Source: Odiellus spinosus
Taxonomy: Eukaryota > Arthropoda > Arachnida > Opiliones > Phalangiidae
Assembly (NCBI GenBank): GCA_963920705.1
Contig: OY987225.1
Location: forward strand, 16,881,492 to 16,945,491
Direction: 5' to 3'
Length of the DNA: 64,000 bases
The position numbers and the translations under genes were made by a program. Below, in pieces: positions 1 through 45,948 of this stretch (the first letter of the stretch is position 1; every line of letters starts with the position of its first letter). The notes under the pieces were generated by a model, which searched no databases, was not told where the DNA came from, and worked only from the letters and a program-made list of their open reading frames with translations.

Positions 1-166
1 TTTTTCGAAAATAAAAGTGACCCGAACGTGATTCGAAAACGTAGCCTTTTGATCTGGAGCCAAACGCGCTATCATAGCGCTATCGGGCCATGGGGTGCCT
101 ACTGCCTTACATGTAGTTCACATTTATTACCAAAAAATCGAAAAGTACTACTTTTTGAAATAAAAG

Positions 167-238
167 TGACCCGAACGTGATTCGAACACGCAGCCTTTTG
201 ATCTGGAGTCAAACGCGCTACCATTGCGCCATCGGGCC
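167..238 (-). tRNA. tRNA-Trp(CCA), structurally intact copy
   Basis: Full cloverleaf by eye: 7-bp acceptor with one G-U pair and discriminator A, 4-bp D stem, anticodon stem TTTGA/TCAAA around CTCCAGA (anticodon CCA at 34-36), T stem GCGTG/CACGT around TTCGAAT. A box reads TGGCGCAATGG, the B box region GTTCGAATC. No CCA is encoded. A TTTT run starts 1 nt past the 3' end, a normal Pol III stop. It matches the consensus of the array, so it could be an active gene or a homogenised satellite unit. Confidence 0.8.
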
Positions 239-760
239 ATGGGGTGTCAGCTACCTTACATGTAGTTCATATTTATTACTAAAAAATCGAAAAGTACTAC
301 TTTTTCGAAAATAAAGGTGACCCGAACGTGATTCGTACACGCAGCCTTTTGATCTGGAGTCAAACGCGCTACCATTGCGCCATCGGGCCATGAGGTGTCT
401 GGTCCCTTACATGTAGTTCAGATTTATTACTAAAAATCTAAAGCCTTCATTTTGAAATAAAAGTCACCCGAACTTGATTCGAAAACTAAACCTTTCAATC
501 TGGAGTTTAACGAGCTACCATAGAGCCTTCATGCCACAAGGTATTAGCTTCCTTACATGTAGTACGCATTTATTACCTAAAAATCGAAAAGTACTTTTTC
601 GAAAATAAAAGTGACCCGAACGTGATTCGAAAACGTAGCCTTTTGATCTGGAACCAAACGCCCTATCATAGCGCTATCGGGCCATGGGGTGCCTACTGCC
701 TTACATGTAGTTCACATTTATTACCAAAAAATCGAAAAGTACTACTTTTTGAAATAAAAG

Positions 761-832
761 TGACCCGAACGTGATTCGAACACGCAGCCTTTTGATCTGA
801 AGTCAAACGCGCTACCATTGCGCCATCGGGCC
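761..832 (-). tRNA. tRNA-Trp-like copy with anticodon UCA
   Basis: Same intact cloverleaf and A/B boxes as the class A consensus, but the anticodon loop is CTTCAGA instead of CTCCAGA, giving anticodon TCA. A UCA anticodon on a Trp body would pair with UGA (and UGG by wobble), as in mitochondrial tRNA-Trp and opal suppressors. This is the only change I found from the consensus in the 72 nt. Expression is unknown; it may be a neutral satellite variant. Confidence 0.7.
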
Positions 833-3800
833 ATGGGGTGTCAGCTACCTTACATGTAGTTCATATTTATTACTAAAAAATCGAAAAATACTACTTTTTC
901 GAAAATAAAAGTGACCCGAACGTGATTCGTACACGCAGCCTTTTGATCTGGAGTCAAACACGCTACCATTGCGCCATCAGGCCATAGGGTGTCTGCTCCC
1001 TTACATGTAGTTCAGATTTATAACTAAAAAAACGAAAAGTACTAATTTTTGAAATAAAAGTCACCCGAACGTGATTCGAAAACGCAACCTTTTAATACGG
1101 AGTACAACGCGCTACCATTGCGCCATCATACCACAAAGTATTAGCTTCCTTAGATGTAGTACGCATTTATTACCTAAAAATCGAAAAGTACTTTTTCGAA
1201 AATAAAAGTGACCCGAACGTGATTCGAAAACGTAGCCTTTTGATCTGGAATCAAACGCGCTACCATAGCGCCATCGAGCCGTGGGGTGCCTACTCTCTTA
1301 CATGTAGTTCACATTTATTACCAAAAAATCGAAAAGTACTACTTTTTGAAATAAAAGTCACCCGAACGTGATTCGAAAACGCAACCTTTTAATCTGGAGT
1401 ACTACGCGCTACAATAGAGCTTTCATGCCACAAGGTATTAGCTTCCTTACATGTAGTACGCATTTATTACCTAAAAATCGAAAAGTACTTTTTCGAAAAT
1501 AAAAGTGACCCGAACGTGATTCGAACACGCAGCCTTTTGATCTGGAGTCAAACGCGCTACCATTGCGAAATCGGGCCATGGGGTGTCCGCTCCCTTACAT
1601 GTAGTTCACATTTATTACTAAAAAAACGAAAAGTACTACTTTTTCGAAAATAAAAGTGACCCGAACGTGATTCGAACACGCAGCCTTTTGATCTGGAGTC
1701 AAACGCGCTACCATTGCGCCAAGGGGCCATGGGGTGTCTGTTCCCTTGCATGTAGTTCACATTTATTACTAAAAAATCGAAAAGTACTACTTTTTCGAAA
1801 ATAAAAGTGACCCGAGCGTGATTCGAACACGCAGCCTCATGATCTGGAGTCAAACGCGCTACTATTGCGCCATCGGGTGTCTGCTCCCTTACATGTAGTT
1901 CAGATTTATAACTAAAAAAACGAAAAGTACTAATTTTTGAAATAAAAGTCACCCGAACGTGATTCGAAAACGCAACCTTTTAATACGGAGTACCACGCGC
2001 TACCATTGCGCCATCATGCCACAAAGTATTAGCTTCCTTACATGTAGTACGCATTTATTACCTAAAAATAGAAAAGTACTTTTTCGAAAATAAAAGTGAC
2101 CCGAACGTGATTCAAAAACGTAGCCTTTTGATCTGGAGCCAAACGCGCTATCATAGCGCCATCGGGCCATGGTGTGCCTATTCCCTTACATGTAGTTCAC
2201 ATTTATTACCAAAAATCGAAAAGTACTACTTTTTGAAATAAAAATCACCCGAACGTGATTCGAAAACTTTACCTTTTAATCTGGAGTACATCGCGCTACC
2301 ATAGAGCCTTCATGCCACAAAGTATTAGCTTCCTTACGCATTTATTACCTAAAAATCGAAAAGTTTTTTTTCGAAAATAAAAGTGACGCGAACACGCAGC
2401 CTTTTGATCTGGAGTCAAACGCGCTACCATTGCGCCATCGGGCCATGGGGAGACCAGCTCCCTTACATGTAGTTCACATTTATTACTAAAAAAAAGAAAA
2501 GTACTACTTTTTCTAAAATAAAAGTGACCCGGACGTGATTCGAACACGCAGCCTTTTGATTTGGAGTCAAACGCGCTACTATTGCGCCAAGGGGCCATGG
2601 GGTGTCTGCTCCCTTACATGTAGTTCAGATTTATTACTAAAAAATCGAAAAGTACTAATTTTTGAAATAAAGGTCACCCGAACGTGATTCGAAAACGCAA
2701 CCTTTTAATCCGGAGTACAACGCGCTACCATTTAGCCTTCATGCCACAAGTTATTACCTTCCTTACATGTAGTACGCATTTATTATATAAAATCAAAAAG
2801 TACTTTTTCTAAAATAAAAGTGACCCGAACGTGATTAGAACACGCAGCCTTTTGATCTGGAGTCAAACGCGCTACCATTGCGCCATCTGGCCATGGGGTG
2901 TCTGTCCCTTACATGTAGTTCACATTTATTACTAAAAATTCGAAAAGTACTACTTTTTCGAAAATAAAAGTGACCCGAACGTGATTCGAACACGCAGCCT
3001 TTTGATCTGGAGTCAAACGCGCTACCATTGCGCCATCGAGCCATGGGGTATCTGCTCCCTTACATGTAGTTCAGATTTATTACTAAAAAATCGAAAAGTA
3101 CTACTTTTTCGAAAATAAAAGTGACCCGGACGTGATTCGAAAACGCAACCTTTTAAACCGGAGTACAACGCTCTACCATTGAGCCTTCATGCCATAAATT
3201 ATTACCTTCCTTACATGTAGTACGCATTTATTACCTAAAAATCGAAAAGTACTTTTTCGAAAATAAAAGTGACCCGAACGTTATTCGAACACGCAGCCTT
3301 TTGATCTGGAGTCAAACGCGCTATCATTGCGCCATCGAGCCATGGGGTATCTGCTCCCTTACATGTAGTTCAGATTTATTACTAAAAAATCGAAAAGTAC
3401 TAATTTTTGAAATAAAAGTCACCCGAACGTATTTCGAAAACGCAACCTTTTAATCCGGAGTACAACGCGCTACCATAGAGCCTTCATGCCACAATGTATT
3501 AGCTTCCTTACATGTAGTACGCATTTATTACCTAAAAATCGAAAAGTACTTTTTCGAAAATAAAAGTGACCCGTACGTGATTCGAACACGCAGCCTTTTG
3601 ATCTGGATTCAAACGCGCTACCATTGCGCCATCGGGCCTGGGGTGTCTGCTCCCTTACATGTAGTTCACATTTATTACTAAAAAATCGAAAAGTACTACT
3701 GTTTCGAAAATAAAAGTGACCCGAACGTGATTCGAACACGCAGCCTCTTGATCTGAAGTCAAACGCGCTACCATTGTGCCATCGAGCCATGGGGTAACTG

Positions 3801-6800
3801 CTGCCTTACATGTAGTTCAGATTTATTACTAAAAAATCGAAAAGTACTACTTTTTCGAAAATAAAAGTGACCCGAACGTGATTCGAAAACGCAACCCTTT
3901 AATCCGGAGTACAACGCGCTACCATTGAGCCTTCATGCCACAAGTTATTACCTTTCTTACATGTAGTACGCATTTATTACCTAAAAATCGAAAAGTACTT
4001 CTTCGAAAATAAAAGTGACCCGAACGTGATTCGAACACGCAGCCTTTTGATCTGGAGTCAAACGCGCAACCATTTCGCCATCGGATGTCTGCTCTTTTAC
4101 CTGTAGTTCACATTTATTACTAAAAAATCGAAAAGTACTACTTTTTGAAATAAAAGTCACCCGAACATGATTCGAAAACGTAACCTTTTAATGCGGAGTA
4201 CAACGCGCTACCATAGAGGCTTCATGCCACAAGATATCAGCTTCCTTACATGTAGTACGCATTTATTACCTAAATATCGAAAAGTACTTTTTCGAAAATA
4301 AAAGTGACCCGAACACGCAGCCTTTTGATCTGGAGTCAAACGCGCTACCATTTCGCCATCGGGTGTCTGCTCCCTTACATGTAGTTCACATTTATTACTA
4401 AAAAATCGAAAAGTACTACTTTTTCGAAAATAAAAGTGACCAGAACGTGATTCGAAAACGCAACCTTTTAATCTGGAGTACAACACGCTAACATTGCGCC
4501 TTCGGGCCATGGGGTGTCTGCTCCCTTACATGTAGTTCAGATTTATTACTAAAAAATCGAAAAGTACTAATTTTTGAAATAAAAGTCACCCGAACGTGAT
4601 TCGAAAACGCAACCTTTTAAACCGGAGTACAACGCTCTACCATTGAGCCTTCATGCCATAAGTTATTACCTTCCTTACATGTAGTACGCATTTATTACCT
4701 AAAAATCGAAAAGTACTTTTTCGAAAATAAAAGTGACCCGTACGTGATTCGAACACGCAGCCTTTTGATCTGGATTCAAACGCGCTACCATTGCGCCATC
4801 GGGCCTGGGGTGTCTGCTCCCTTACATGTAGTTCACATTTATTACTAAAAAATCGAAAAGTACTACTTTTTCGAAAATAAAAGTGACCCGAACGTGATTC
4901 GAAAACGCAACCCTTTAATCCGGAGTACAACGCGCTACCATTGAGCCTTCATGCCACAAGTTATTACCTTTCTTACATGTAGTACGCATTTATTACCTAA
5001 AAATCGAAAAGTACTTCTTCGAAAATAAAAGTGACCCGAACGTGATTCGAACACGCAGCCTTTTGATCTGGAGTCAAACGCGCAACCATTTCGCCATCGG
5101 GTGTCTGCTCTTTTACCTGTAGTTCACATTTATTACTAAAAAATCGAAAAGTACTACTTTTTCGAAAATAAAAGTGACCCGAACGTGATTCGAAAACGCA
5201 ACCTTTTAATCTGGAGTACAACACGCTACCATTGCGCCTTCGGGCCATGGGGTGTCTGCTCCGTTACATGTAGTTCACATTTATTACCAAAAAATCGAAA
5301 AGTACTACTTTTTGAAATAAAAGTCACCCGAACGTGATTCGAAAACGCAACCTTTTAATCTGGAGTACAACGCGCTACCATTGAGCCTTCATGCCACAAG
5401 TTATTACCTTCCTTACATGTAGTACGCATTTATTACCTAAAAATCGAAAAGTACTTTTTCGAAAACAAAAGTGACCCGAACGTGATTCGAACACGCAGCC
5501 TTTTGATCTGGAGTCAAACGCGCTACCATTTCGCCATCGGGTGTCTGCTCCCTTACATGTAGTTCACATTTATTACTAAAAAATCGAAAAGTACTACTTT
5601 TTCGAAAATAAAAGTGACCCGAACAAATTCGAAAACGCAACCTTTTAATCTGGAGTACGCTACCATTGCGCCTTCGGGCCATGGGGTGTCTGCTCCCTTA
5701 CATGTAGTTCACATTTATTACCAAAAAATCGAAAAGTACTACTTTTTGAAATAAAAGTCACCCGAACGTGATTCGAAAACGCAACCTTTTAATCTGGAGT
5801 ACAACGCGCTACCATTGAGCCTTCATAAAACAAGTTATTACCTTCCTTACATGTAGTACGCATTTATTACCTAAAAATCGAAAAGTACTTTTTCGAAAAT
5901 AAAAGTGACATGAACGTGATTCGAAAACGCAGCCTTTTGATCTGGAGTCAAACGCGCTACCATTGCGCCATCGAGCCTGGGGTGTCTGCTCCCTTACATG
6001 TAGTTCACATTTATTACTAAAAATTCGAAAAGTACTACTTTTTCGAAAATAAAAGTGACCCGAACGTGGTCCGAACACGCACCCACTTGATCTGGAGTCA
6101 AACGCGCTACCATTGCGCCATCGGGCTATTAGGAACGCGTTCCCTTTCATGTGGTACTCATTTATTATTTAAAAATCGAAGAGTACTACTTTTTGATATA
6201 AAAGTCACCCTAACGTGATTCGAAAACGAAGCATTTTAATCTGGAGTAAAACGTGCTTCAAGAGAATCTTCTGCCACAAGGTATCATTACTTAAACATGG
6301 AAAAGTACTTTTACGAAAATAGAAGTGACCCGAACGTGACTCCAACACGCAGCCTTTTGATCAGTAGTCAAACGCGCTACCGTTGCACCATCGGGCCATG
6401 GGGTGTCAGCTCCCTTACATATAGTTCACATTTATTACTAAAAAATCTAAAATTACTAATTTTTGAAATAAAAGTCACCCTAACGTGATTCGAAAACGCA
6501 ACCTTTTAATCCGTAGTACAACGCGCTACCATAGAGCCTTCATGCAACAAGGTATTAGCTTCCTTACATGTAGTACGCATTTATTACCTAAAAATCGAAA
6601 AGTACTTTTTCGAAAATGAAAGTGACCCGAACAAGCAGCCTTTTGATCTGGAGTCAAACGCGCTACCATTGCGCCAACGGGCCATGTGGTGTGTGCTCCC
6701 TTACATGTGGTTCACATTTACTACTAAAAAATCGAAAAATACTACTTTTTCGAAAATAAAATTGACCCGAACGTGATTCGAACACGCAGATTTTTGATCT

Positions 6801-7032
6801 GGAGTCAAACGCGCTACCATTGCGCCATCGGGCCATAAGAATATTTTCCCTTTCATGTGGTACTCATTTATTATTTAAAAATCGAAGAGTACTACTTTTT
6901 GAAATAAAATTCACCCTTACGTGACTCGATAACGAAGCATTTTAATCTGGAGTAAAACGCGCTTCAAGAGAATCTTCAAGCCACAAGCTATCATTACTTA
7001 AACATGGAAAAGTACTTTTACGAAAATAGAAG

Positions 7033-7104
7033 TGACCCGAACGTGACTCGAACACGCAGCCTTTTGATCAGTAGTCAAACGCGCTACCGTTGCACCATCG
7101 GGCC
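7033..7104 (-). pseudogene. tRNA-Trp-derived copy with anticodon ACU
   Basis: Anticodon loop CTACTGA gives ACT (would read AGU, Ser) with an intact anticodon stem. The A box is altered to TGGTGCAACGG, weakening the D stem. A sister copy at 6326-6397 has the same loop plus a T-loop mutation. Best read as tRNA pseudogenes. Confidence 0.6.
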
Positions 7105-8616
7105 ATGGGATGTCAGCTCCCTTACATGTAGTTCACATTTATTACTAAAAAATCTAAAAGTACTAATTTTTGAAATAAAAGTCACCCTAACGTGATTCGA
7201 ATACGCAAATTTTTATACCGGAGTAAAACGCGCTACCATAGAGCCTTCATGCCACAAGGCATCAGCTTCCTTACATGTAGTACGTATTTATTACCTAAAA
7301 ATCGAAAAGTACTTTTTCGAAAATAAAAGTGACCCGAACGTGATTCGAAAACGTAGCCTTTTGATCTGGAGCCAAACGCGCTATCATACCGCCATCGGGC
7401 CATGGTGTGCCTACTCCCTTACATGTAGTTCACATTTATTACCAAAAAATCGAAAAGCATTACCATACAGCCCTCAACCCACAAGGTATTAACTTCCTTA
7501 CATGTAGTACGCATTTATTACCTAAAAATCGAAAAGTACTTTTTCGAAAATAAAAGTGACCCGAACGTGATTCGATCACGCAGCCTTTTGATCTGGAGTC
7601 AAACGCGCTACCATAGCGCCATCGGGCCATGGGGTCTCAGTTACCTTACATGTAGTTCAATATTTATTACTAAAAAGTCGAAAAGTACTACTTTTTCGAA
7701 AATAAAAGTGACCCGAACGTGATGCGAACACGCAGCCTTTTGATCTGGAGTCAAATGCGCTACCATTGCGCCATCGGGCCATGTGATGTGTGCTCCCTTA
7801 CATGTAGTTCACATTTATTACTAAAAAATCGAAAAGTACTACTTTTTCGAAAATAAAAGACACCCGAACGTGATTCGAACACGCAGCCTTTTGACCTGGA
7901 GTCAAACGCGCTACCATAGCGCCATCGGGCCATGGGGTGTCAGTTACCTTACATGTAGTTCAATATTTATTACTAAAAAATCGAAAAGTACTACTTTTTC
8001 GAAAATAAAAGTGACCCGAACGTGATTCGTACACGCAGCCTTTTGATCTGGAGTCAAACGCGCTACCATTGCGCCATCGGGCCATAGGGTGACTACTCTC
8101 TTACATGTAGTTCACATTTATTACCAAAAAATCGAAAAGTACTACTTTTTGAAATAAAAGTCACCCGAACGTGATTCGAAAACGCAACCTTTTAATCTGG
8201 AGTACTACGCGCTACAATAGAGCTTTCATGCCACAAGGTATTAAGTTCCTTACATGCAGTACGCATTTATTACCTAAAAATCGAAAAGTACTTTTTCGAA
8301 AATAAAAGTGACCCGAACGTGATTCGAACACGCAGCCTTATGATCTGGAGTCAAACGCGCTACCATTGCGCCATCAGGCCATGGGGTGTCTGCTCCCTTA
8401 CATGTAGTTCACATTTATTACTAAAAAATCGAAAAGTACTACTTTTTCGAAAATAAAAGTGACCCGAACGTGATTCGAACACGCAGCCTTTTGATCTGGA
8501 GTGAAACGCGCTACCATTGCGCCATCGGGCCATGAGGTGTCTGCTCCCTTACATGTAGTTCAGATTTATAACTAAAAAATCTAAAGCCTTCATTTTGAAA
8601 TAAAAGTCACCCGAAC

Positions 8617-10256
8617 TTGATTCGAAAACTAAACCTTTCAATCTGGAATTTAACGAGCTACCATAGAGCCTTCATGCCACAAGGTATTAGCTTCCTTACA
8701 TGTAGTACGCATTTATTACCTAAAAATCGAAAAGACTTTTTCGAAAATAAAAGTGACCCGAACGTGATTCGAAAACGTAGCCTTTTGATCTGGAACCAAA
8801 CGCGCTATCATAGCGCTATCGGGCTATGGAGTGCTTACTCCCTTACATGTAGTTCACATTTATTACCAAAAAATCGAAAAGTACCACTTTTTGAAATAAA
8901 AGTGACCCGAACGTGATACGAACACGCTGCCTTTTGATCTGGAGTCAAACGCGCTACCATTGCGCCATCGGGCCACGGGATGTCAGCTACCTTACATGTA
9001 GTTCATATTTATTACTAAAAAATCGAAAAGTACTACTTTTTCGAAAATAAAAGTGACCCGATCGTGATTCGTACACGCAGCCTTTTGATCTGGAGTCAAA
9101 CGCGCTACCATTGCGCCATCAGGCCATGGGGTGTCAGCTCCCTTACATGTAGTTCAGATTTATAACTAAAAAAACGAAAAGTACTAATTTTTGAAATAAA
9201 AGTCACCCGAACGTGATTCGAAAACGCAACCTTTTAATACGGAGTACAACGCACTACCATTGCGCCATCATGCCACAAAGTATTAGCTTCCATACATGTA
9301 GTACGCATTTATTACCTAAAAATCGAAAAGTACTTTTTCGAAAATAAAAGTGACCCGAACGTGATTCGAAAACGTAGCGTTTTGATCTGGAGCCAAACGC
9401 GCTATCATAGTGCCATCGGGCCATAGGGTGCCTACCCTCTTACATGTAGTTCACATTTATTACCAAAAAATCGCAAAGTACTACTTTTTGAAATAAAAGT
9501 CACCCGAACGTGATTCGAAAACGCAACCTTTAAATCTGGAGTACTACGCGCTGCAATAGAGCTTTCATGCCACAAGGTATTAGGTTCCTTACATGCAGTA
9601 CGCATTTATTATCTTAAAAATCGAAAAGTACTTTTTCGAAAATAAAAGTGACCCGAACGTGATTCGAACACGCAGCCTTATGATCTGGAGTCAAACGCGC
9701 TACCATTGCGCCATCGGGCCATGGGGTGTCTGCTCCCTTACATGTAGTTCACATTTATTACTAAAAAATCGAAAAGTACTACTTTTTCGAAAATAAAAGT
9801 GACCCGAACGTGATTCGAACACGCAGCCTTTTGATCTGGAGTCAAACGCGCTACCATTGCGCCATCGGGCCATGAGGTGTCTGCTCCCTTACATGTAGTT
9901 CAGATTTATTACTAAAAAATCTAAAGCCTTCATTTTGAAATAAAAGTCACCCGAACTTGATCCGAAAACTAAACCTTTCAATCTGGAGTTTAACGAGCTA
10001 CCACAGAGCCTTCATGCCACAAGGTATTAGCTTCCTTACATGTAGTACGCATTTATTACCTAAAAATCGAAAAGACTTTTTCGAAAATGAAAGTGACCCG
10101 AACGTGATTCGAAAACGTAGCCTTTTGATCAGGAACCAAACGCGCTATCATAGCGCTATCGGGCTATGGAGTGCCTACTCCCTTACATGTAGTTCACATT
10201 TATTACAAAAAAATCGAAAAGTACTACTTTTTGAAATAAAAGTGACCCGAACGTGA
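8617..10256 (-). repeat. Higher-order duplication, offset ~1340 bp
   Basis: The multi-monomer stretch starting near 8617 recurs from about 9957 with only scattered changes, an offset of 1340 bp (about nine monomers). It shares the same class order, including an unusual monomer whose plus-strand spacer reads AAATCTAAAGCCTTCATTTTG. This shows unequal exchange or amplification in multi-monomer blocks. Confidence 0.75.
9800..9871 (-). tRNA. tRNA-Trp(CCA), structurally intact copy
   Basis: Identical to the class A consensus over all 72 nt: all four stems pair, anticodon CCA, A and B boxes unbroken, TTTT directly downstream. Neighbouring monomers 9649-9720 (anticodon-stem mismatch) and the following class B unit are degenerate. 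Confidence 0.8.
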
Positions 10257-10799
10257 TTCGAACACGCAGCCTTTTGATCTGGAGTCAAACGCGCTACTGT
10301 TGCGCCAACGGGCCATGGGTTGTCAACTCCCTTACAAAAATTTCACATTTATTAATAAAAAATCGAAAAGTACTACTTTTTCGAAAATAAAAGTGACCCG
10401 AACGTGATTCGAACACGCAGCCTTTTGATGTGGAGTCAAACGCGCTACCATTGCGCCATCGGGCCATGGGGTGTGTGCTCCCTTACATGTAGTTCACATT
10501 TATTACTAAAAAATCGAAAAGAACTACTTTTTCGAAAATAAAAGTGACCCGAACACGCAGCCTTTTGATCCGGAGTCAAACGCGCTACTGTTGCGCCAAC
10601 GGGCCATGGGTTGTCAACTCCCTTACATAAAGTTCACATTTATTAATAAAAAATCGAAAAGTACTACTTTTTCGAAAATAAAAGTGACTCGAACGTGACT
10701 CGAACACGCAGCCTTTTGATCTGGAGTCAAACGCGCTACCGTTGCGCCATCGGGCCTTGGTTTGTCAGATCCCTTACATGTAGTTCACATTTATTACTA

Positions 10800-11953
10800 A
10801 AAAATCTAAAAGTACTAATTTTTGAAATAAAAGTCACCCTAACGTGATTCGAAAACGCAACCTTTTAATCCGGAGTACAACGCGCTACCATAGAGCCTTC
10901 ATGCAACAAGGTATTAGCTTCCTTACATGTAGTACGCATTTATTACCTAAAAATCGAAAAGTACTTTTTCGAAAATGAAAGTGACCCGAACAAGCAGCCT
11001 TTTGATCTGGAGTCAAACGCGCTACCATTGCGCCATCGGGCCATGTGGTGTGTGCTCCCTTACATGTAGTTCTCATTTATTACTAAAAAATCGAAAAGTA
11101 CTACTTTTTCGAAAATAAAAGCGACCCGCACGTTACTCGAACACGCAGCCTTTTGATCTGGAGTCAAACGCGCTACTGTTGCGCCAACGGGCCATGGGTT
11201 GTCAACTCCCTTACATAAAGTTCACATTTATTACTAAAAAATCGAAAAGAACTCCTTTTTCGAAAATAAAAGTGACCCGAACACGCAGTCTTTTGATCTG
11301 GAGTCAAACGCGCTACCATTGCGCCATCGGCCCATTAAAAATGTTTTCTCTTTCATGTGGTACTCATTTATTATTTAAAAATCTAAAAGTACTAATTTTT
11401 GAAATAAAAGTCACCCTAACGTGATTCGAAAACGCAACCTTTTATTCCGGAGTACAACGCGCTACCATAGAGCCTTCATGCAACAAGGTATTAGCTTCCT
11501 TACATGTAGTACGCATTTATTACCTAAAAATCGAAAAGTACTTTTTCGAAAATGAAAGTGACCCGAACAAGCAGCCTTTTGATCTGGAGTCAAACGCGCT
11601 ACCATTGCGCCATCGGGCCATGTGGTGTGTGCTCCCTTACATGTAGCTCTCATTTATTACTAAAAAATCGAAAAGTACTACTTTTTCGAAAATAAAAGCG
11701 ACCCGCACGTTACTCGAACACGCAGCCTTTTGATCTGGAGTCAAACGCGCTACTGTTGCGCCAACGGGCCATGGGTTGTCAACTCCCTTACATAAAGTTC
11801 ACATTTATTACTAAAAAATCGAAAAGAACTCCTTTTTCGAAAATAAAAGTGACCCGAACACGCAGTCTTTTGATCTGGAGTCAAACGCGCTACCATTGCG
11901 CCATCGGGCCATTAGAAATGTTTTCTCTTTCATGTGGTACTCATTTATTATTT
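10800..11953 (-). repeat. Higher-order tandem duplication, 577-bp unit x2
   Basis: The segment 10800-11376 is repeated almost exactly at 11377-11953 (four monomers, about 144 bp each). The two copies share private features, such as a missing 11-nt T-arm piece and the plus-strand text CATAAAGTTCAC, so the duplication is recent. Confidence 0.85.
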
Positions 11954-12109
11954 AAAAATCGAAGAGTACTACTTTTTGAAATAAAAGTCAACCTAACGTG
12001 ATTCGAAAACGAAGCATTTTAATCTGGAGTAAAACGCGCTTCAAGAGAATCTTCATGCCACTAGGTATCATTACTTAAACATGGAAAAGTACTTTTACGT
12101 AAATAGAAG

Positions 12110-12181
12110 TGACCCGAACGTGACTCGAACACGCAGCCTTTTGATCTGGAGTCAAACGCGCTACCGTTGCGCCATCGGGCC
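12110..12181 (-). tRNA. tRNA-Trp(CCA), intact copy with AACGGTA D loop
   Basis: All stems pair and the anticodon is CCA. The D loop reads AACGGTA and the T loop TTCGAGT, both closer to the general animal tRNA-Trp pattern as I know it than the array consensus (AATGGTA, TTCGAAT). It sits downstream of a class D monomer, so its 3' trailer differs: CTTCTATTTAC, with only three Ts before a C, a weaker Pol III stop. Confidence 0.75.
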
Positions 12182-13537
12182 ATGGGCTGTCAGCTCCCTT
12201 ACTTGTGGTTCACATTTATTACTAAAAAATCGAAAAGTACTACTTTTTCGAAAATAAAAGTGACCCGAACGTGATTCGAACACGCAGCCTTTTAATCTGG
12301 AGTCAAACGCGCTACTATTGTGCCAAGGGGCCATGGGGTGTCAGCTCCCTTACATGTAGTTCACATTTATTACTAAAAAATCTAAAAGTACTAATTTTTG
12401 AAATAAAAGTCACCCTAACGTGATTCGAATACGCAACCTTTTATACCGGAGTAAAACGCGCTACCATAGAGCCTTCATGCCACAAGGCATCAGCTTCCTT
12501 ACATGTAGTACGTATTTATTACCTAAAAATCGAAAAGTACTTTTTCGAAAATAAAAGTGACCCGAACGTGATTCGAAAACGTAGCCTTTTGATCTGGAGC
12601 CAAACGCGCTATCATACCGCCATCGGGCCATGGTGTGCCTACTCCCTTACATGTAGTTCACATTTATTACCAAAAAATCGAAAAGCACTACCATACAGCC
12701 TTCAACCCACAAGGTATTAACTTCCTTACATGTAGTACGCATTTATTACCTAAAAATCGAAAAGTACTTTTTCGAAAATAAAAGTGACCCGAACGTGATT
12801 CGATCACGCAGCCTTTTGATCTGGAGTCAAACGCGCTACCATAGCGCCATCGGGCCATGGGGCTCAGTTACCTTACATGTAGTTCAATATTTATTACTAA
12901 AAAGTCGAAAAGTACTACTTTTTCGAAAATAAAAGTGACCCGAACGTGATGCGAACACGCAGCCTTTGATCTGGAGTCAAACGCGCTACCATAGCGCCAT
13001 CGGGCCATGGGGTCTCAATTACCTTACATGTAGTTCAATATTTATTACTAAAAAGTCGAAAAGTACTACTTTTTCGAAAATAAAAGTGGCCCGAACGTGA
13101 TGCGAACACGCAGCCTTTTGATCTGGAGTCAAATGCGCTACCATTGCGCCATCGGGCCATGTGATTTGTGCTCCCTTACATGTAGTTCACATTTATTACT
13201 AAAAAATCGAAAAGTACTACTTTTTCGAAAATAAAAGTGACCCGAACGTGATTCGAACACGCAGCCTTTAGATCTGGAGTCAAACGCGCTACCATAGCGC
13301 CATCGGGCCAATGGGTGTCAGTTACCTTACATGTAGTTCAATATTTATTACTAAAAAATCGAAAAGTACTACTTTTTCGAAAATAAAAGTGACCCGAACG
13401 TGATTCGAAAACGCAACCTTTTAATCCGGAGTACAACGCGCTACCATAGAGCCTTCATGCCACAAGGTATTTGCTTTCTTACATGTAGTACGCATTTATT
13501 ACCTAAAAATCGAAAAGTACTTTTTCGAAAATAAAAG

Positions 13538-13609
13538 TGACCCGAACGTGATTCGAACACGCAGCCTTTTGATCTGCAGTCAAACGCGCTACCATTGCGC
13601 CATCGGGTG
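13538..13609 (-). pseudogene. tRNA-Trp-derived copy with anticodon GCA
   Basis: Anticodon loop CTGCAGA gives GCA (Cys-type). D, anticodon and T stems pair, but the 5' end belongs to the subclass in which the flank CCATGGG is lost, so the 1-72 acceptor pair is mismatched. Likely a pseudogene. Confidence 0.55.
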
Positions 13610-15419
13610 TCTGCTCTCTTACATGTAGTTCTCATTTATTACTAAAAAATCGAAAAGTACTACTTTTTCGAAAATAAAACTGACCCGAACGTGATTCGAA
13701 CACGCAGCCAATTGATGTGGAGTCAAACGCGCTACCATTGCGCCATCGAGCCATGGGGTGTTTGCTCCCTTACATGTAGTTCACATTTATTACTAAAAAA
13801 TCGAAAAGAACTACTTTTTCGAAAATAAAAGTGACCCGAACACGCAGTCTTTTGATCTGGAGTCAAACGCGCTACCATTGTGCCATCGGGCCATTAGAAA
13901 TGTTTTCCCTTTCATGTGGTACTCATTTATTATTTAAAAATCGAAGAGTACTACTTTTTGAAATAAAAGTCAACCTAACGTGATTCGAAAACGAAGCATT
14001 TTAATCTGGAGTAAAACGCACTTCAAGAGAATCTTCATTCCACTAGGTATCATTACTTAAACATGGAAAAGTACTTTTACGTAAATAGAAGTGACCCGAA
14101 CGTGACTCTAACACGCAGCCTTTTGATCTGGAGTCAAACGCGCTACCGTTGCGCCATCGGGCCATGGGTTGTCAGCTCCCTTACTTGTAGTTCACATTTA
14201 TTACTAAAAAATCGAAAAGTACTACTTTTTCGAAAATAAAAGTGACCCGAACGTGATTCGAACACGCAGCCTTTTAATCTGGAGTCGAACGCGCTACTAT
14301 TGCGCCAAAGGGCCATGGGGTGTGTGCTCCCTTACATGTAGTTCAGATTTATTACTAAAAATTCGAAAAGTACTACTTTTTGAAATAAAAGTCACCCGAA
14401 CGTGATTCGAAAACGAAACCTTTTAATCCGGAGTACAACGCGCTACCATAGAGCCTTCATGCCACAATGTATTTGCTTTCTTACATGTAGTACGCATTTA
14501 TTACCTAAAAATCGAAAAGTACTTTTTCGAAAATAAAACCGACCCGAACGTGATACGAACACGCAGCCTTTTGATCTGGAGTCAAACGCGCTACCATTGC
14601 GCCATCGGGTGTCTGCTCCCTTACATGTAGTTCTCATTTATTACTAAAAAATCGAAAAGTACTACTTTTTCGAAAATAAAAGTGACCCGAACGTGATTCG
14701 AACACGCAGCCAATTGATGTGGAGTCAAACGCGCTACCATTGCGCCATCGGGCCATGGGGTGTGTGCTCCCTTACATGTAGTTCAGATTTATTACTAAAA
14801 AATCGAAAAGTACTAATTTTTGAAATAAAAGTTACCCGAACGTGATTCGAAAACGCAACATTTTAATCCGGAGTACAAAGCGCTACCATTGCGCCATCAT
14901 GCCACAAGGTATTAGCTTTCTTACCTGTAGTATGCATTTATTACCTAAAAATCGAAAAGTACTTTTTCGAAAATAAAAGTTACCCGAACGTGATTCGAAA
15001 ACGTAGCTTATTGATCTGGAGCCAAACGCGCAATCATAGCGCCATCGGGCCATGGTGTGCCTAGTCCCTTACATGTAGTTAACATTTATTACCAAAAAAT
15101 CAAAAAGTACTACTTTTTGAAATAAAAATCATCCGAACGTGATTCGAAAACGCTACCTTTTAATCTGGAGAACAACGCGCTACCATACAGCCTTCATGCC
15201 ACAAGGTATTAGCTTCCTTACCTGTAGTATGCATTTATTACCTAAAAATCGAAAAGTACTTTTTCGAAAATAAAAGTGACCCGAACGTGATTCGAACACG
15301 GAGCCTTTTGATCTGGAGTCCAACACGCTACCAATGCGCCATCGGGTGTCAGCTCACTTACATGTAGTTCATATTTATTACTAAAAAATCGAAAAGTACT
15401 GCTTTTTCGAAAATAAAAG

Positions 15420-15491
15420 TGACCCGAACGTGATTCGAACACGTAGCCTTTTGATCTGGAGTCAAACGCGCTACCATTGCGCCATCGGGCC
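15420..15491 (-). tRNA. tRNA-Trp(CCA), structurally intact copy
   Basis: Complete cloverleaf with CCA anticodon. Position 49 is A instead of G, so the T stem is ACGTG/CACGT and the G-U pair of the consensus becomes a Watson-Crick A-U. A and B boxes are intact and TTTT follows the 3' end. Confidence 0.78.
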
Positions 15492-17055
15492 ATGGGGTGC
15501 GTGCTCCCTTACATGTAGTTCACATTTATTACTAAAAATTCGAAAAGTACTAATTTTTCGAAAATATAAATTACCCGAACGTGATCCGAACACGCAGCCA
15601 CTTGATCTGGAGTCAAACGCGCTACCATTGCGCCATCGGGCTATTAGGAATGTGTTCCCTTTCATGTGGTACTCATTTATTATTTAAAAATCGAAGAGTA
15701 CTACTTTATGATATAAAAGTCACCCTAACGTGATTCGAAAACGAAGCATTTTAATCTGGAGTAAAACACGCTATCATAGCGCCATCGGGCCATGGGGTGC
15801 CTACTCCCTTACATGTAGTTCACATTTATTACCAAAAAATCGAAAAGTACTACTTTTTGAAATAAAAGTCACCCTAACGTGATTCGAAAACGAAGCATTT
15901 TAATCCGGAGTATAACGCGCTACCATAGAGCCTTCATGCCACAAGGTATTAGATTCCTTACATGTAGTACGCATTTATTACCTAAAAATCGAAAAGTACT
16001 TTTTCGAAAATAAAAGTGACCGAACGTGATTCGAACACGCAGCCTCTTGTTCTGGAGTCAAACGCACTACTACTGCGCCATCGGACCATGGGGTGGCTGC
16101 TCCCTTACATGTAGTTCAGATTTATTACTAAAAAATCGAAAAGTACTAATTTTTGAAATAAAAGTCACCCGAACGTGATTCGAAAACGCAACCTTTTAAT
16201 CCGGAGTACAACGCGCTACCATTGCGCCATCATGCCACAAGGTATTAGCTTCCTTACATGTAGTATGCATTTATTACCTAAAAATCGAAAAGTACTTTTT
16301 CGAAAATAAAAATGACCCGAACGTGATTCTAACACGCAGCCTTTTGATCTGGAGTCAAACGCGCTACCATAGCGCCATCGGGCCATGGGGAGTCAGTTAC
16401 CTTACATGTAGTTCAACATTTATTACCAAAAAATCGAAAAGTACTACTTTTTGAAATAAAAGTCACCCGAACGTGATTCGAAAACGCAACCTTTTAATCT
16501 GGAGTACAACGCGCTACCATTGAGCCTTCATGCCACAAGTTATTACCTTTCTTACATGTAGTACGCATTTATTACCTAAAAATCGAAAAGTACTTTTTCG
16601 AAAATAAAAGTGACCCGAACGTGATTCGAACACGCAGCCTTTTGATCTGGATCCAAACACGCTACCATTGCGCCATTGGGCCATGGAGTATCAACTCCCT
16701 TACATGTAGTTCATATTTATTACTAAAAATCGAAAAGTACTACTTTTTCGAAAATAAAAGTGACCCGAACGTGATTCGAACACGTTGAATTTTGATCTGG
16801 AGTCAAACGCGCTACCATTGCGCTATCGGGCCATGGGGTCTCTGCTCCTTTACATGTAGTTCACATTTATTACTAAAAAATCGAAAAGTACTACTTTTTC
16901 GAAAATAAAAGTGACCCGAACGTGATTCGAACACGCAGCCTTTTGATCTGGAGTCAAACGCGCTACCATTGCGCCTTCGGGCCATTAGGAATGTTTTTCC
17001 TTTCATGTGGTACTCATTTATTATTTAAAAATCGAAGAGTACTACTTTTTGATTT

Positions 17056-17553
17056 TACAAAAAAGAGGTTGCTTCGCACCCTTAAAAAAAACTCTTTATC
17101 TAACTCGAATCAAACCCGTGAAGGGACAGAAATTATTTGTTAGAGAAAGAGCAATTTCATATCTTTAAAATTATAGTTAGTAGATTTAGTCTACTACTTC
17201 AAAGATTTTATTACTATTATATATTTTCCAAAAAAACGGATAAAGACGACCTAGGACTAAAGATAAATATATATACATTAAAGGAACTTCATCTTTAGCT
17301 AATTTTATTAGCGATACTGATAGAATTTAAAATAAACATCAATGCGAGAGGAAGGTTAACTAGGTCGTCTTTATCCGTTTTTTGGAAAATATATAATAGT
17401 AATAAAATCTTTGAAGTAGTAGACTAAATCTACTATAATTTTAAAGATATGAAATTGCTCTTTCTCTAACAAATAATTTCTGTCCCTTCACGGGTTTGAT
17501 TCGAGTTAGATAAAGAGTTTTTTTTAAGGGTGCGAAGCAACCTCTTTTTTGTA
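17056..17553. repeat. Large inverted repeat (foldback), ~195-bp arms
   Basis: Left arm 17056-17254 and right arm 17360-17553 are near-perfect reverse complements separated by a 105-bp AT-rich loop. The only clear difference I see is a 4-bp indel in the region TATAGTTAGTAG. Such a structure could be a foldback transposon end, a template-switch product, or the source of a hairpin RNA processed by Dicer. Confidence 0.88.
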
Positions 17554-17718
17554 TAATTTCTGTCCTTTTTTCACCAAAAATATACACCTTTTCCACATTT
17601 CACTATTATGCTTTATAGGTTTATTGAACCTTAATTCTTACTAATGCTGAATAAAAATTAAAGCGTTTAATTGAGGCTTCAATCTATTCGTAATTGAGAC
17701 CCTGGTACAAATCTCGAA

Positions 17719-18140
17719 AGGCAGAGATTAACTAACCTAACCTTACCTAAGTTGTAAAACAGGGATGGGCTAGTTCAATTGATTAACTAACCTAAACTAA
17801 TCTTACCTAAAATACTACAAGAGGAACGGGTTAGCCCGAGTTATAGGGATTACCTAGTTGGAGGGATGGGCTATTTCCAGGGTTTAATTAACCTAATTTA
17901 ACCTTAAAGATTACTTGATGGAATGGGTGACCCGAGGGATTAACTAGTTGGAGCGATGGGCTAATTCGAGGAATTAACTAACCTAACCTAGCCTTACCTA
18001 AAATATTACAAATTGCCCGAGCTAAGGATTAACTAGTTGGAGGGATTACCAGATGGACGGGGGAGGTAGAGGGATTAACTAACCTAGCCTTTCCTAAAAT
18101 ATTACAAGAGGGACGGGCTAGACCGAGCTAGAGATTAAAT
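17719..18140. repeat. Degenerate tandem repeat with TAACCTAACC and GGGATGGGCTA motifs
   Basis: Recurring phrases AACTAACCTAACC, TTACCTAAAATA, GGATTAACTAGTTGGAG and GACGGGCTA follow each other irregularly several times. The AACCTAACC pieces resemble diverged TTAGG-type repeats on the opposite strand. No coding potential is seen. Confidence 0.6.
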
Positions 18141-18682
18141 TTATAATATTGAATCGCATCGACAAAAAATTAGCATGGAAAGCGAAACAATTCTTTAAAG
18201 CAAGAGAACATAATTATGGAGACCAGAAGTATGTGGCCGTTTATTTAACTCGCCGACATCAATTTTCGTTTCGTATATCCTATTTAACATTCTAAATCTT
18301 TATTTTTTATTATAATTAAGTTAGACGTGCTTTAGATACAGCCTTCAATAATTGGCCAACTACTTAATAGCTACGTTATTACGTAGTTGTAATGACGAAG
18401 CTATTGGATCTAAAGCACATCCTAGTCGCAAAACTCAAGTATTTTAAAAAATAAAGTAGAGATTGAGAACGTTAAACTATAAATTTCATGTGTAATCGAG
18501 CACTTGGCAGGATATGAAGTCTAACTCAAGTACCTGAAAAAAAAAAAATAAAAATAAAAATTAATGTCCATCTATATCGTTCATTTCATTAGCTTTTCTA
18601 TGTAATATTTACCGCTGCTTTTCTTCTGTATAAATATCATGTAAAGATGCAGCCCGTTCCTCTTCTGCTCGCCTTTTACACA

Positions 18683-18730
18683 CAGGCCATTCATCTAGTG
18701 CTCGTGACCTTCCACTAGATGAATGGCCTG
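18683..18730. repeat. Perfect 18-bp stem hairpin over the FLYWCH ORF end
   Basis: Arms 18683-18700 and 18713-18730 are exact reverse complements with a 12-nt loop. The left arm supplies the TAG stop of the FLYWCH-like frame on the minus strand. Confidence 0.9.
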
Positions 18731-18895
18731 ATTTGCCTCTCCACTCATTCTTGACTTTGCGTTGCAGTCATTCCTAGGGCATTTCAAATAAACAATGCCG
18801 TTGATATTCCTAGCTCCAGCTTTTCGGTACGCAAAGTTTCTCGAAATATACACCTTCGAGCCTTTTCTCTCTCCTAATTCTTGAGTTAATTCCAT
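18695..18895 (-). CDS. Short FLYWCH-type zinc finger ORF (fragment)
   Basis: A 66-aa ATG-initiated frame. It shows an N-terminal GSKVYISRNFAYRK stretch, then YLKCPRNDCNAKSRM, then HLVEGHEH at the C-terminus. The C-x4-C plus terminal H-x-H arrangement with a preceding aromatic-rich strand matches the FLYWCH zinc finger, a DNA- or protein-binding domain found in insect regulators and next to MULE transposases. The domain is only about 60 aa, so this is a single finger. Its stop codon lies inside a perfect 18-bp inverted repeat (18683-18730), which suggests the reading frame was cut by a local inverted duplication. It may be a transposon-captured exon, a pseudogene or a tiny real gene. No introns or promoter can be assigned. 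Confidence 0.55.
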   Translation of the reverse strand: MELTQELGERKGSKVYISRNFAYRKAGARNINGIVYLKCPRNDCNAKSRMSGEANQAIHLVEGHEH

Positions 18896-19124
18896 GAAAA
18901 CTATATTAGGAGTATATTAGTTATAAGCTAACTAATGAAAGGGGGTATTTTAAAAGTTGAAATATTACATTTTAAACGCTAACGTATACCACGCATTGGT
19001 ACAGTGCATCTGTGAGTACTGAATCTGCAAATCTCGTTTATATAGGCCGAGAAGAGATATATTATTAAAGTTAAAAAATCAAATGATAAGAAAATCATGC
19101 CAACTTTTTAATTAAGGTGAATTA

Positions 19125-19257
19125 GGGTGAATATAATGGGATACTCATGATATGACATAATAGTCAAAATTAGACGGCTGAAGAGGGCTACCCTAGTAAA
19201 AGAACCCAATAAATGCAATTTTCCGTTAACGATAAAAAATGCCATTAAAAAAAACTT
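19125..19257 (+). repeat. Dispersed repeat shared with 47628-47760
   Basis: Text such as AATGGGATACTCATGATATG, TAATAGTCAAAATTA and GGCTGAAGAGGGCTACCC recurs with modest divergence at 47628-47760 in element V, in the same orientation. No ORF; a short interspersed element or a piece shared between the host elements. Confidence 0.7.
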
Positions 19258-19261
19258 ATCA

Positions 19262-19690
19262 ACTGTTTAATAAAATCAATTTTTGTTTATCAATTTAAAG
19301 CCAATTAATAAAGCTCGGCTAGTTATATGTTTTACTCTTTTCGTCACCCATACAGGCATCTGTCTCTCTATTAACTCGAATTCGATGGATATTCATTATC
19401 ATTCTAAGGTTTAAGAAATAAAATTTTGTTTACCATTTTGAAGCAATTAATAAAGCTCGGCTAAGCTTATGATTTCACCCTTTTGTAACCCATTCAGGCA
19501 CCTTTCTTTCTATTAACTCGAATTCGATGGATATTCCTTATCATTCTACTGTTTAAGAAATAAAATTTTTGTTTATCATTTTGAAGCAATTAGTAACGCT
19601 CGGCTAAGCTTAAGATCTCACCCTTTTGCAACCCATTCAGGCACCTTACTTTCCATTACTTCGTATACTTAATCAACATTTCATTATTGG
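19262..19690 (+). repeat. Tandem repeat, ~142-144 bp x3
   Basis: The motif CAATTAATAAAGCTCGGCT starts at 19302 and 19444, and a variant at 19588 (periods 142 and 144). Each unit also contains CACCC-TTT..CCCAT-CAGGCA and TTAACTCGAATTCGATGGAT. It is unrelated in sequence to the tRNA satellite although the period is similar. Confidence 0.82.
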
Positions 19691-19802
19691 AATCTTTGTT
19701 TAACTAGAGATACTCTTGTACCCGAACGAAGTCTTATCAAATTTTTTCAAAAGTACCTTTGTCTGTATTAATTCGAATTCAGTGGACGGTGGGAAGAGGG
19801 AA

Positions 19803-19821
19803 ACGACGACGACGACGACGA
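19803..19821 (+). repeat. (ACG)n microsatellite
   Basis: Six ACG units in a row inside element I. Confidence 0.85.
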
Positions 19822-19856
19822 TTTCAGTTTCTGATGAAATTCGAGTTTAGATAAAG

Positions 19857-19883
19857 GGATAAACACGACCGTGTTTATCCTAA
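19857..19883 (+). repeat. Terminal hairpin plus CTAA of element I
   Basis: Stem GGATAAACACG / CGTGTTTATCC with a 2-nt loop; the last C of the stem begins CTAA, then host T. This is the Helitron-like 3' signature used to place the element end. Confidence 0.6.
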
Positions 19884-22203
19884 TATAAAAGTCACCCTAA
19901 CGTGATTCGAAACGAAGCATTTTAATCTGGAGTAAAACGCGCTACAAGAGAATCTTCATGCCACAAGGTATCATTACTTAAACATGGAAAAGTACTTTTA
20001 CGAAAATAGAAGGGACCCGAACGTGATTCGAACACGCAACCTTTTAATCCGGAGTACAAGGCGCTACCATAGAGCCTTCATGCCACAAAGTATTAGCTTC
20101 CTTACATGTAGTATGCATTTATTACCTAAAAATCGAAAAGTACTTTTTCGAAAATAAAAGTGACCCCAATGTGATTCGAACCGGCAGCCTTTTGGTCTGG
20201 AGTCCAACACGCTACCAATGCGCCATCGGGTGTCAGCTCACTTACATGTAGTTCATATTTATTACTAAAAAATCGAAAAGTACTGCTTTTTCGAAAATAA
20301 AAGTGACCCGAACGTGATTCGAACACGTAGCCTTTTGACCTGGAGTCAAACGCGCTACCATTGCGCCATCGGGCCATGGGGTGCGTGCTCCCTTACATGT
20401 AGTTCACATTTATTACTAAAAATTCGAAAAGTACTAATTTTTCGAAAATATAAGTGACCCGAACGTGATCCGAACACGCAGCCACTTGATCTGGAGTCAA
20501 ACGCGCTACCATTGCGCCATCGGGCTATTAGGAATGTGTTCCTTTTCATGTGGTACTCATTTATTATTTGAAAATCGAAGAGTACTACTTTTTGATATAA
20601 AAGTCACCCTAACGTGATTCGAAAACGAAGCATTTTAATCTGGAGTAAAACACGCTATCATAGCGCCATCGGGCCATGGGGTGCCTACTCCCTTACATGT
20701 AGTTCACATTTATTACCAAAAAATCGAAATGTACTACTTTTTGAAATAAAAGTCACCCTAACGTGATTCGAAAACGAAGCATTTTAATCTGGAGTAAAAC
20801 GCGCTTCAAGAGAATCTTCATGCCACAAGGTGTCATTACTTAAACATGGAAAAGTACTTTTACGAAAATAGAAGTGACCCGAACGTGACTCGAACACGCA
20901 GCCTTTGATCTGGAGTCAAACGCGCTACCGTTGCGCCATCGGGCCATGGTTTGTCAGCTCCCTTACTTGTAGTTCACATTTATTACTAAAAAATCGAAAA
21001 GTACTACTTTTTGAAATAAAAGTCACCCAACGTGATTCGAAAACGCAACCTTTTAATCCGGAGTACAACGCGCTACCATTGCGCCATCATGCCACAAGGT
21101 ATTAGCTTCCTTACATGTAGTATGCATTTATTACCTAAAAATCGAAAAGTACTTTTTCGAAAGTAAAAGTGACCCGAACGTGATTCGAACCGGCAGCCTT
21201 TTGATCTGGAGTCAAACACCCTACCATTGCGCCATTGGGCCATGGGGTAGCAGCTCCCTTACATGTAGTTCAGATTTATTACTAAAAAATCGAAAAGTAC
21301 TAATTTTTGAAATAAAAGTCACCCGATCGTGATTCGAAAACGCAACCTTTTAATCCGGAGTACAACGCGCTACCATTGCGCCATCATGCCACAAGGTATT
21401 AGCTTCCTTACATGTAGTATGCATTTATTACCTAAAAATCGAAAAGTACTTTTTCGAAAATAAAAATGACCCGAACGTGATTCGAACACGCAGCCTTTTG
21501 ATCTTGAGTCAAACGCGCTACCATAGCGCCATCGGGCCATGGGGTGTCAGTTACCTTACATGTAGTTCAACATTTATTACCAAAAAATCGAAAAGTACTA
21601 CTTTTTGAAATAAAAGTCACCCGAACGTGATTCGAAAACGCAACCTTTTAATCTGGAGTACAACGCGCTACCATTGAGCCTTCATGCCACAAGTTATTAC
21701 CTTTCTTACATGTAGTACGCATTTATTACCTAAAAATCGAAAAGTACTTTTTCGAAAATAAAAGTGACCCGAACGTGATTCGAACACGCAGCCTTTTGAT
21801 CTGGAGCCAAACACGCTACCATTGCGCCACTGGGCCATGGAGTATCAACTCCCTTACATGTAGTTCATATTTATTACTAAAAATCGAAAAGTACTACTTT
21901 TTCGAAAATAAAAGTGACCCGAACGTGATTCGAACACGTAGAATTTTGATCTTGAGTCAAACGCGCTACCATTGCGCCATCGGGCCATGGGGTGTCTGAT
22001 CCCTTACATGTAGTTCACATTTATTACTAAAAAATCGAAAAGTACTACTTTTTCGAAAATAAAAGTGACCCGAACGTGATTCGAACACGCAGCCTTTTGA
22101 TCTGGAGTCAAACGCGCTACCATTGCGCCTTCGGGCCATTAGGAATGTTTTTCCTTTCATGTGGTACTCATTTATTATTTAAAAATCGAAGAGTACTACT
22201 TTT
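19884..22203 (-). repeat. tRNA-Trp-derived satellite, block 2 (~16 monomers)
   Basis: Same 144-149 bp monomers, minus-strand tRNA sense. It starts mid-monomer (TATAAAAGTCACCC), continuing the unit broken by element I, and ends in the T run before element II. Classes A to E alternate. It includes the two CAA-anticodon copies (21467-21538 and 21915-21986) and a near-intact CCA copy at 22066-22137 with A instead of T at position 8. Confidence 0.92.
21915..21986 (-). tRNA. tRNA-Trp-like copy with anticodon CAA
   Basis: Acceptor, D, anticodon and T stems pair and both internal promoter boxes are intact. The anticodon loop is CTCAAGA, giving CAA (would read UUG, Leu), and the variable region is altered. 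A second CAA copy at 21467-21538 has an A box change at position 14. Trp synthetase recognises the CCA anticodon, so charging with Trp is doubtful; a pseudogene is most likely. Confidence 0.6.
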
Positions 22204-22204
22204 T

Positions 22205-22238: not shown

Positions 22239-22256
22239 TTTACACTGGTCGTATCT

Positions 22257-29868: not shown

Positions 29869-29882
29869 TTTACACTGGTCGT

Positions 29883-45929: not shown

Positions 45930-45948
45930 AACTTTGTTCAATGTTCTG

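What the first reader, a model, noticed from the sequence alone, without database searches (positions are those of the whole stretch)
1..17052. A megasatellite built from tRNA-Trp(CCA) genes
Seven blocks totalling about 35 kb are tandem 144-149 bp monomers, each a minus-strand tRNA-Trp body plus T-run terminator plus AT-rich spacer; about 240 copies in this window, and the array runs off the left edge. A subset keeps a perfect cloverleaf, A and B boxes and CCA anticodon, while whole degenerate classes are also amplified. Animals usually have a few to tens of tRNA-Trp genes. The array could supply tRNA, tRNA fragments or Pol III-driven chromatin function (tRNA genes act as insulators and bind TFIIIC), or be a selfish satellite.
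Basis: partly seen in the sequence, partly recalled or inferred. Interest (0 to 1): 0.92.

Follow-up and report, generated by a model that had tools for sequence, protein, structure and literature searches.

The report
tRNA-Trp satellite array in a harvestman
A harvestman chromosome carries hundreds of head-to-tail copies of a tryptophan tRNA gene, some intact and many decayed, beside a similar array of another tRNA gene, so in this arachnid ordinary translation genes have been turned into satellite-like DNA.

Summary
The window has 249 tRNA-Trp-derived units, all minus strand, in seven pieces (about 35 kb); ARAGORN makes 114 tRNA-Trp(CCA) calls there. The host is the harvestman Odiellus spinosus. 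The array runs on leftwards: 901 units, about 130 kb, within C1:16741347-16945437, next to a tRNA-Thr array.

Of 901 units, 125 keep every stem, conserved tertiary base and the CCA anticodon, and 83 share one exact 72-nt body; 251 form a badly decayed class amplified together with the good ones. Consensus units score like two dispersed chromosome-7 genes (69 bits) and differ from them by six pairing-preserving stem changes. So a working isodecoder was amplified and has evolved largely as a satellite; signs of selection are mixed.

It is not alone: Ala, Cys, Lys, Thr and Ser-like arrays exist in this genome, which has 7,784 B-box matches against 310 for a control. Tandem tRNA arrays are known in Entamoeba, Hydractinia and Nippostrongylus. 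No function was shown.

The parts
1..17077 (-). Array piece 1, continuing left of the window (the same piece starts at C1:16869291; 200 units in all)
17078..19876 (.). Insert I9; a long inverted repeat with 126-nt (99%) and 58-nt (100%) arms lies at 17052-17557
19877..22203 (-). Array piece 2, 17 units
22204..24490 (.). Insert I10, mobile element with a hairpin end (...GTTCAGTCGGGGAGGTA)
24491..29834 (-). Array piece 3, 38 units
29835..33433 (.). Insert I11; its first 2.3 kb is 97.4% identical to insert I10
33434..41043 (-). Array piece 4, 53 units (the profile match overruns the start of the LTR element by about 20 bp)
41022..46138 (+). Ty3/gypsy-type LTR element inside an array unit; 150-nt direct repeats 100% identical at its ends; reverse transcriptase, RNase H and integrase domains in the ORF 41646-45929
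46138..46256 (-). Array piece 5, a 119-bp remnant with two partial unit matches after the LTR element
46257..50002 (.). Insert I13, same kind of element ends, at CTTTT|ATTTC just 3' of a tRNA body
50003..51024 (-). Array piece 6, 8 units
51025..62087 (.). Insert I14 (11,063 bp), nested; contains a second LTR element (173-nt repeats at 53760-53932 and 58101-58273, 99% identical; ORF 53918-58027)
62088..63946 (-). Array piece 7, 14 units, ending at another element end of the same kind
35453..35524 (-). Best-scoring tRNA-Trp unit in the window (70.9 bits)

Best explanation
A functional tRNA-Trp(CCA) isodecoder on chromosome 1 of the harvestman Odiellus spinosus, with about 75 bp of flank, was duplicated in tandem and expanded into a satellite-like array of at least 901 units. 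Shown: head-to-tail units on one strand; higher-order blocks that carry intact and decayed units together; multi-kilobase duplications inside the array; and an array consensus whose differences from the dispersed genes all preserve pairing. Inferred: expansion was by unequal sister-chromatid exchange or break-induced replication, which copied good and bad units alike; the array is tolerated because each good unit is self-contained (internal promoter plus T-run terminator); some of the 125-174 intact or near-intact copies are probably transcribed, while most copies are not needed. The same kind of array has formed from at least five other tRNA isotypes in this genome, so the cause is more likely a genome-wide tendency than a need for tRNA-Trp.
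For: 901 units, one strand. TRF periods 148-151 and a dimer of 297-300. Mean unit identity is highest at an offset of 4 units (0.872; next neighbours 0.830; mean over 499 offsets 0.855), and duplications of 11.4 kb (96.3%), 10.6 kb (97.1%) and 7.6 kb (96.4%) lie in the locus. Class strings repeat d-B-A blocks. Strictly intact 125 of 901; at most one mispair 174 of 901, all 174 with a T4 run within 28 nt. 83 exact copies of the consensus 72-nt body, 5 of them in the window. Array consensus against the chr7 genes: 6 of 6 differences are in stems and keep pairing, including two double changes (model pairs 7:65 and 27:41); 6 random changes keep all 21 pairs with simulated probability 0.022. Array consensus units and chr7 genes both score 69.0 bits. 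Distinct stem alleles in class A keep pairing 16 of 76 times (0.211; expected 0.214). Other isotype arrays.
Against: In class A the body is less diverged (0.057) than its upstream spacer (0.12), in class B about equal (0.047 against 0.038-0.062), in class d more diverged (0.105 against 0.023-0.056). Pairing-keeping stem alleles in A sit in more distinct units (6.75 against 2.53 per allele), the reverse of d (2.40 against 7.10). This is what selection or gene conversion on good bodies would give. Classes are defined partly by body columns, so it is not decisive. The exchange mechanism was not observed.
Confidence: 0.68

Rival explanations
1. The array is kept by selection as a high-output source of tRNA-Trp or tRNA-Trp fragments, for example at a stage of heavy synthesis.
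For: 125 strictly intact units and 174 near-intact, all 174 with terminators. Class A bodies are conserved relative to spacers. Only 3 of 250 exact anticodon-arm matches in the genome lie outside the 255-kb region examined.
Against: Two dispersed canonical genes exist on C7. 251 of 901 units are in a class averaging 6.9 mispairs and were amplified too. Distinct new stem alleles look neutral. Cys and Trp, usually the rarest codons (recalled), are among the arrayed isotypes, so copy number does not seem to follow demand; codon usage was not measured.
Confidence: 0.17
2. A chromatin role: dense TFIIIC sites acting as insulator, boundary or chromosome-folding element; the tRNA product is incidental.
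For: A human tRNA gene repeat at 1q23.3 binds CTCF and is implicated as a boundary (abstract). Five array loci (Thr/Trp on C1, Lys on C4, Lys on C5, Cys on C16, Ala on C17) lie at 0.38-0.61 of contig length.
Against: B-box position 53 is T instead of G in 397 of 825 near-full units. The Ser-like array lies at 0.23 of C1. No occupancy data.
Confidence: 0.1
3. A tRNA-derived SINE family that happens to be clustered.
For: Many units are decayed tRNAs with an AT-rich tail.
Against: All 901 units are head to tail on one strand. The matches of a unit that one search listed all lie in this locus; it counted 436 and listed only the best. The unit consensus shows no poly-A or LINE-type tail by eye. Target-site duplications were not looked for.
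Confidence: 0.03
4. An assembly artefact that inflates a short array.
For: Long similar segments, such as the 10.6-kb pair at offset 35,156.
Against: HiFi, about 54-fold, QV 60.6. The longest repeated segments are 96-97% alike, not identical; insert copies I6 and I7 differ (99.5%).
Confidence: 0.02

Closest known systems
tRNA arrays of the nematode Nippostrongylus brasiliensis (VeCTRs; PMC5765664, abstract and passages read)
   Same: Close to 150 copies of a roughly 200-bp repeat with a tRNA-Trp gene, and 90 copies of tRNA-Ser with an 80-bp spacer; species-specific flanking sequence. Trp and a Ser-like tRNA are also arrayed here.
   Different: Here 901 Trp units of 149 bp, higher-order blocks with amplified decayed classes, mobile-element interruptions, six isotypes, and an arachnid host. 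Uniformity of the nematode copies was not stated in the passages read.
tRNA arrays of Hydractinia (PMC11067881, passages read)
   Same: Tandem arrays of tens to hundreds of copies; there for tRNAs of all 20 amino acids.
   Different: [quoted passage not shown] here spacers near 65-90 bp and strong internal decay in the Trp array. Not all isotypes were tested here.
Entamoeba tRNA gene arrays (PMC2652664, passages read)
   Same: Long tandem arrays of tRNA genes; function unclear.
   Different: There 25 unit types with up to 5 genes each, most copies uniform within an isolate, over 10% of the genome; here one isotype per array in the pieces read and mixed intact and decayed units.
Human 1q23.3 tRNA repeat (PMC4041453, abstract read)
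   Same: Tandem tRNA-containing repeat.
   Different: 7.3-kb GC-rich units with tRNA genes, 9-43 copies per allele.
Survey of eukaryotic tDNA clusters (PMC2888827, abstract and passages read)
   Same: Clusters arise independently many times; Nematostella has over 17,000 tDNAs, 89% clustered.
   Different: Mostly heterogeneous pairs in Nematostella; no harvestman in the passages read.

Membership tests
Tandem tRNA gene array (Entamoeba / Hydractinia / Nippostrongylus kind) | Head-to-tail units on one strand, tens to hundreds of copies | tested here: met
   901 of 901 units on one strand
Tandem tRNA gene array (Entamoeba / Hydractinia / Nippostrongylus kind) | Units contain predicted functional tRNA genes | tested here: met
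   443 Trp(CCA) ARAGORN calls in 255 kb; 125 of 901 units strictly intact
Tandem tRNA gene array (Entamoeba / Hydractinia / Nippostrongylus kind) | Copies nearly uniform within the array (reported for Entamoeba and Hydractinia) | tested here: not met
   Mean identity between units about 0.855; 323 distinct bodies among 836 units with at most 3 body gaps. For that reason it is filed as a variant, not as a typical member
Satellite DNA with higher-order repeats | Periodicity above the monomer | tested here: met
   297-300 bp dimer, offset-4 maximum, d-B-A strings
Satellite DNA with higher-order repeats | Core better homogenised than edges | tested here: inconclusive
   Strictly intact units: 85 of 592 in the two longest pieces, 9 of 132 in the six pieces to their right, 31 of 177 in the seven pieces to their left
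Functional nuclear tRNA gene | Cloverleaf, A and B boxes, T-run terminator | tested here: met
   For 125 strict and 174 near-intact units by pairing, tertiary bases, anticodon and T-run; boxes judged through those conserved bases
Functional nuclear tRNA gene | Transcribed, processed and charged | not testable with these tools
   No RNA data could be searched
tRNA-derived SINE | Dispersed copies across the genome | tested here: inconclusive
   Listed matches of a unit all lie in one locus, but only the best of 436 were listed
tRNA-derived SINE | Target-site duplications and a LINE-type tail | not tested
   No such tail seen by eye in the consensus

The most novel reading that the evidence does not exclude
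In this harvestman most tRNA genes live in satellite DNA: thousands of tRNA units in isotype arrays with private spacers of about 65-90 bp and unit lengths near one nucleosome, in which intact genes ride inside higher-order repeats together with amplified pseudo-tRNAs, and translation depends largely on satellite copies.
Probability: 0.3. Interest if true: 0.75.

Novelty: new variant of a known kind. Interest (0 to 1): 0.55.

Why it matters
It adds an arachnid to the few lineages reported with massive tRNA gene arrays, and unlike the near-uniform arrays described for Entamoeba and Hydractinia it shows good and decayed units amplified together in higher-order blocks. That makes an open question testable: whether tRNA arrays are kept for dosage or chromatin, or are satellites that expand because tRNA genes provoke unequal exchange. 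The array isodecoder differs from the dispersed gene at six positions, so RNA sequencing alone could tell which is used.

Tried and rejected
Mobile elements aiming at tRNA genes: several inserts sit just 3' of tRNA bodies (model positions 69-93), which looked like Pol III targeting. One search shows the same element ends beside A-runs in other places too, including a Thr unit and non-array sequence, so a preference for A4/T4 explains it; some inserts are also copies of one event (I6, I7 and the shared part of I8). The elements resemble Helentrons (no clear target-site duplication, hairpin end), but that label is recalled and was not tested.

Centromere idea: five array loci lie at 0.38-0.61 of their contigs, but the Ser-like array does not (0.23 of C1), and nothing else supports it.

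Selection test by downstream spacer looked strong (A-A body/spacer ratio 0.27, d-d 0.87), but class follows the upstream spacer better, so that test was misphased and one search is used. At cell level, stem changes in A kept pairing 0.437 against 0.275 expected (B 0.261 against 0.281, d 0.299 against 0.325); by distinct alleles the A excess vanishes (0.211 against 0.214).

First guesses at the host (an insect, from TTAGG telomeres) were dropped after the COX1 match and the genome note. The first long-duplication search returned nothing because its seed was too long; repeated.

Not done: read depth, RNA evidence, tRNAscan-SE, other harvestmen, the array beyond 1.1 kb right of its last unit, codon usage, and an initiator-Met control (asked ten times, never answered).
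Full report
WHAT IS THERE. An iterated nucleotide profile built from one unit finds 901 tRNA-Trp-derived units in the 255 kb examined (C1:16690001-16945491), all on the minus strand, covering about 130 kb of C1:16741347-16945437; 249 are in the window. Median spacing is 149 bp. A unit is a 72-nt tRNA body, a T-run (CTTTTATTT) and about 75 bp of AT-rich spacer. ARAGORN makes 443 Trp(CCA) calls in the 255 kb and 114 in the window. Fourteen interruptions longer than 500 bp break the locus. Right of the window the sequence leaves the array at another element end and does not return within the 1.1 kb I could read, so the right limit is unknown.

HOST. The mitochondrial COX1 is 99% identical over the 485-residue query to that of Oligolophus tienmushanensis, a phalangiid harvestman (only the 7,999 candidates sharing most words were scored).

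CLASSES. By diagnostic columns the 901 units are 430 A, 111 B, 251 d and 109 other. A units average 1.1 mispairs; 228 have none, and 125 of these also keep all checked tertiary bases and the CCA anticodon. B units have T instead of G at B-box position 53 (part of how they are defined), plus two D-loop changes in 108 of 111. d units average 6.9 mispairs, and 118 of 251 have CCG at the anticodon. The T-run is present in 430 of 430 A, 111 of 111 B and 248 of 251 d units. Class is tied more to the spacer upstream than downstream, so upstream spacer plus body is the natural unit.

ORIGIN. The pair of tRNA-Trp genes around C7:10400217 and C7:10401202 scores 69.0 bits, the same as the five window units with the consensus body. 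The array consensus differs from them at six positions, all in stems, all keeping pairs, with two compensatory pairs. Of 250 exact matches to a Trp anticodon-arm pattern in the genome, 247 are in the 255-kb region, two are the C7 genes and one was not located. The founder was therefore very probably a working isodecoder.

SATELLITE BEHAVIOUR. There are dimers of 297-300 bp, a best match at an offset of four units, and internal duplications of up to 11.4 kb. Distinct stem alleles in class A are as disruptive as chance predicts: 16 of 76 keep the pair, 0.211 against 0.214. Against this, A bodies are more conserved than their spacers while B bodies are about equal and d bodies less so, and pairing-keeping alleles in A are the more widespread ones; that could be weak selection, or conversion among good copies.

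NOT ALONE. A tRNA-Thr array with AGT, CGT and TGT genes in blocks of about 643 bp has exact-core matches from C1:16526781, none listed between 16547863 and 16651849, and runs to 16741135, about 0.2 kb from the first Trp fragment. Ala: about 160-bp units at C17:8320150 onward. Cys: about 154 bp at C16:6172533 onward. Lys: 146-149 bp on C4 and C5. Ser-like: about 161 bp, in several clusters over C1:8.12-8.24 Mb; the isotype is read by eye from 700 bases, where ARAGORN called Phe and Cys on two decayed units. Exact core patterns count Thr 416, Lys 259, Trp 250, Cys 136 and Ala 128 in the whole genome; for Thr, Lys, Cys and Ala only about the first 100 places were listed, so I cannot say that all of the rest lie in arrays. 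A few are outside the arrays, for example a pair of Cys genes on C3 with different spacers. The B-box pattern GGTTCGANTCC occurs 7,784 times against 310 for its reversed control; Trp and most Thr units here do not match that pattern, and SINEs or other tRNA-like sequences could contribute. Spacers of the different arrays show no obvious shared motif by eye. A family search for tRNA scored only 63 of 60,283 candidates, so other isotypes remain unexamined.

LITERATURE. Tandem tRNA arrays are known in Entamoeba, Hydractinia, Nippostrongylus, including Trp, and at human 1q23.3; clusters recur across eukaryotes. Ten searches of the held library showed no paper on tRNA arrays in a harvestman among the rows listed; several listings were cut, most listed papers were not opened, and the library lacks most subscription journals.

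VERDICT. A real, large tRNA-Trp array, derived from a functional gene and evolving largely as a satellite, in a genome where several other tRNA isotypes have done the same. Whether the intact copies are used is unknown.

Noticed in passing
C1:16526781-16741135 (L009-L014 hold 16690001-16750000): tRNA-Thr array with three isoacceptors interleaved in blocks of about 643 bp, switching strand near 16700.3 kb, beside the Trp array.
   Followed up: partly
L041, L043, L044, L045, L067: Ala, Cys, Lys (two chromosomes) and Ser-like tRNA arrays elsewhere in the genome.
   Followed up: partly
window 22204-24490, 29835-33433, 46257-50002, 51025-62087: Mobile elements with ends ACAAGTTGGGAAACC and TCGGGGAGGTA (hairpin), preferring A4/T4, some copied together with the array.
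   Followed up: partly
window 41022-46138: LTR element with 100% identical 150-nt end repeats inside an array unit, so probably a recent insertion.
   Followed up: partly
window 17052-17557: Long near-perfect inverted repeat (126-nt and 58-nt arms) at the end of array piece 1.
   Followed up: no
window 47974-48679 and 52959-53253: Minisatellites (TTGGGCGAAATGG-type and a 20-bp unit) inside the inserts.
   Followed up: no
G000:C17:1112807-4393978: Several partial COX1 matches with mitochondrial stop usage on a 13.7-Mb contig, probably nuclear mitochondrial copies.
   Followed up: no
L050, L051, L052, L053: TTAGG telomere repeats at the right ends of C1 and C17; a short satellite at the left end of C17 and mixed TCAGG/TTAGG at the left end of C1.
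   Followed up: no
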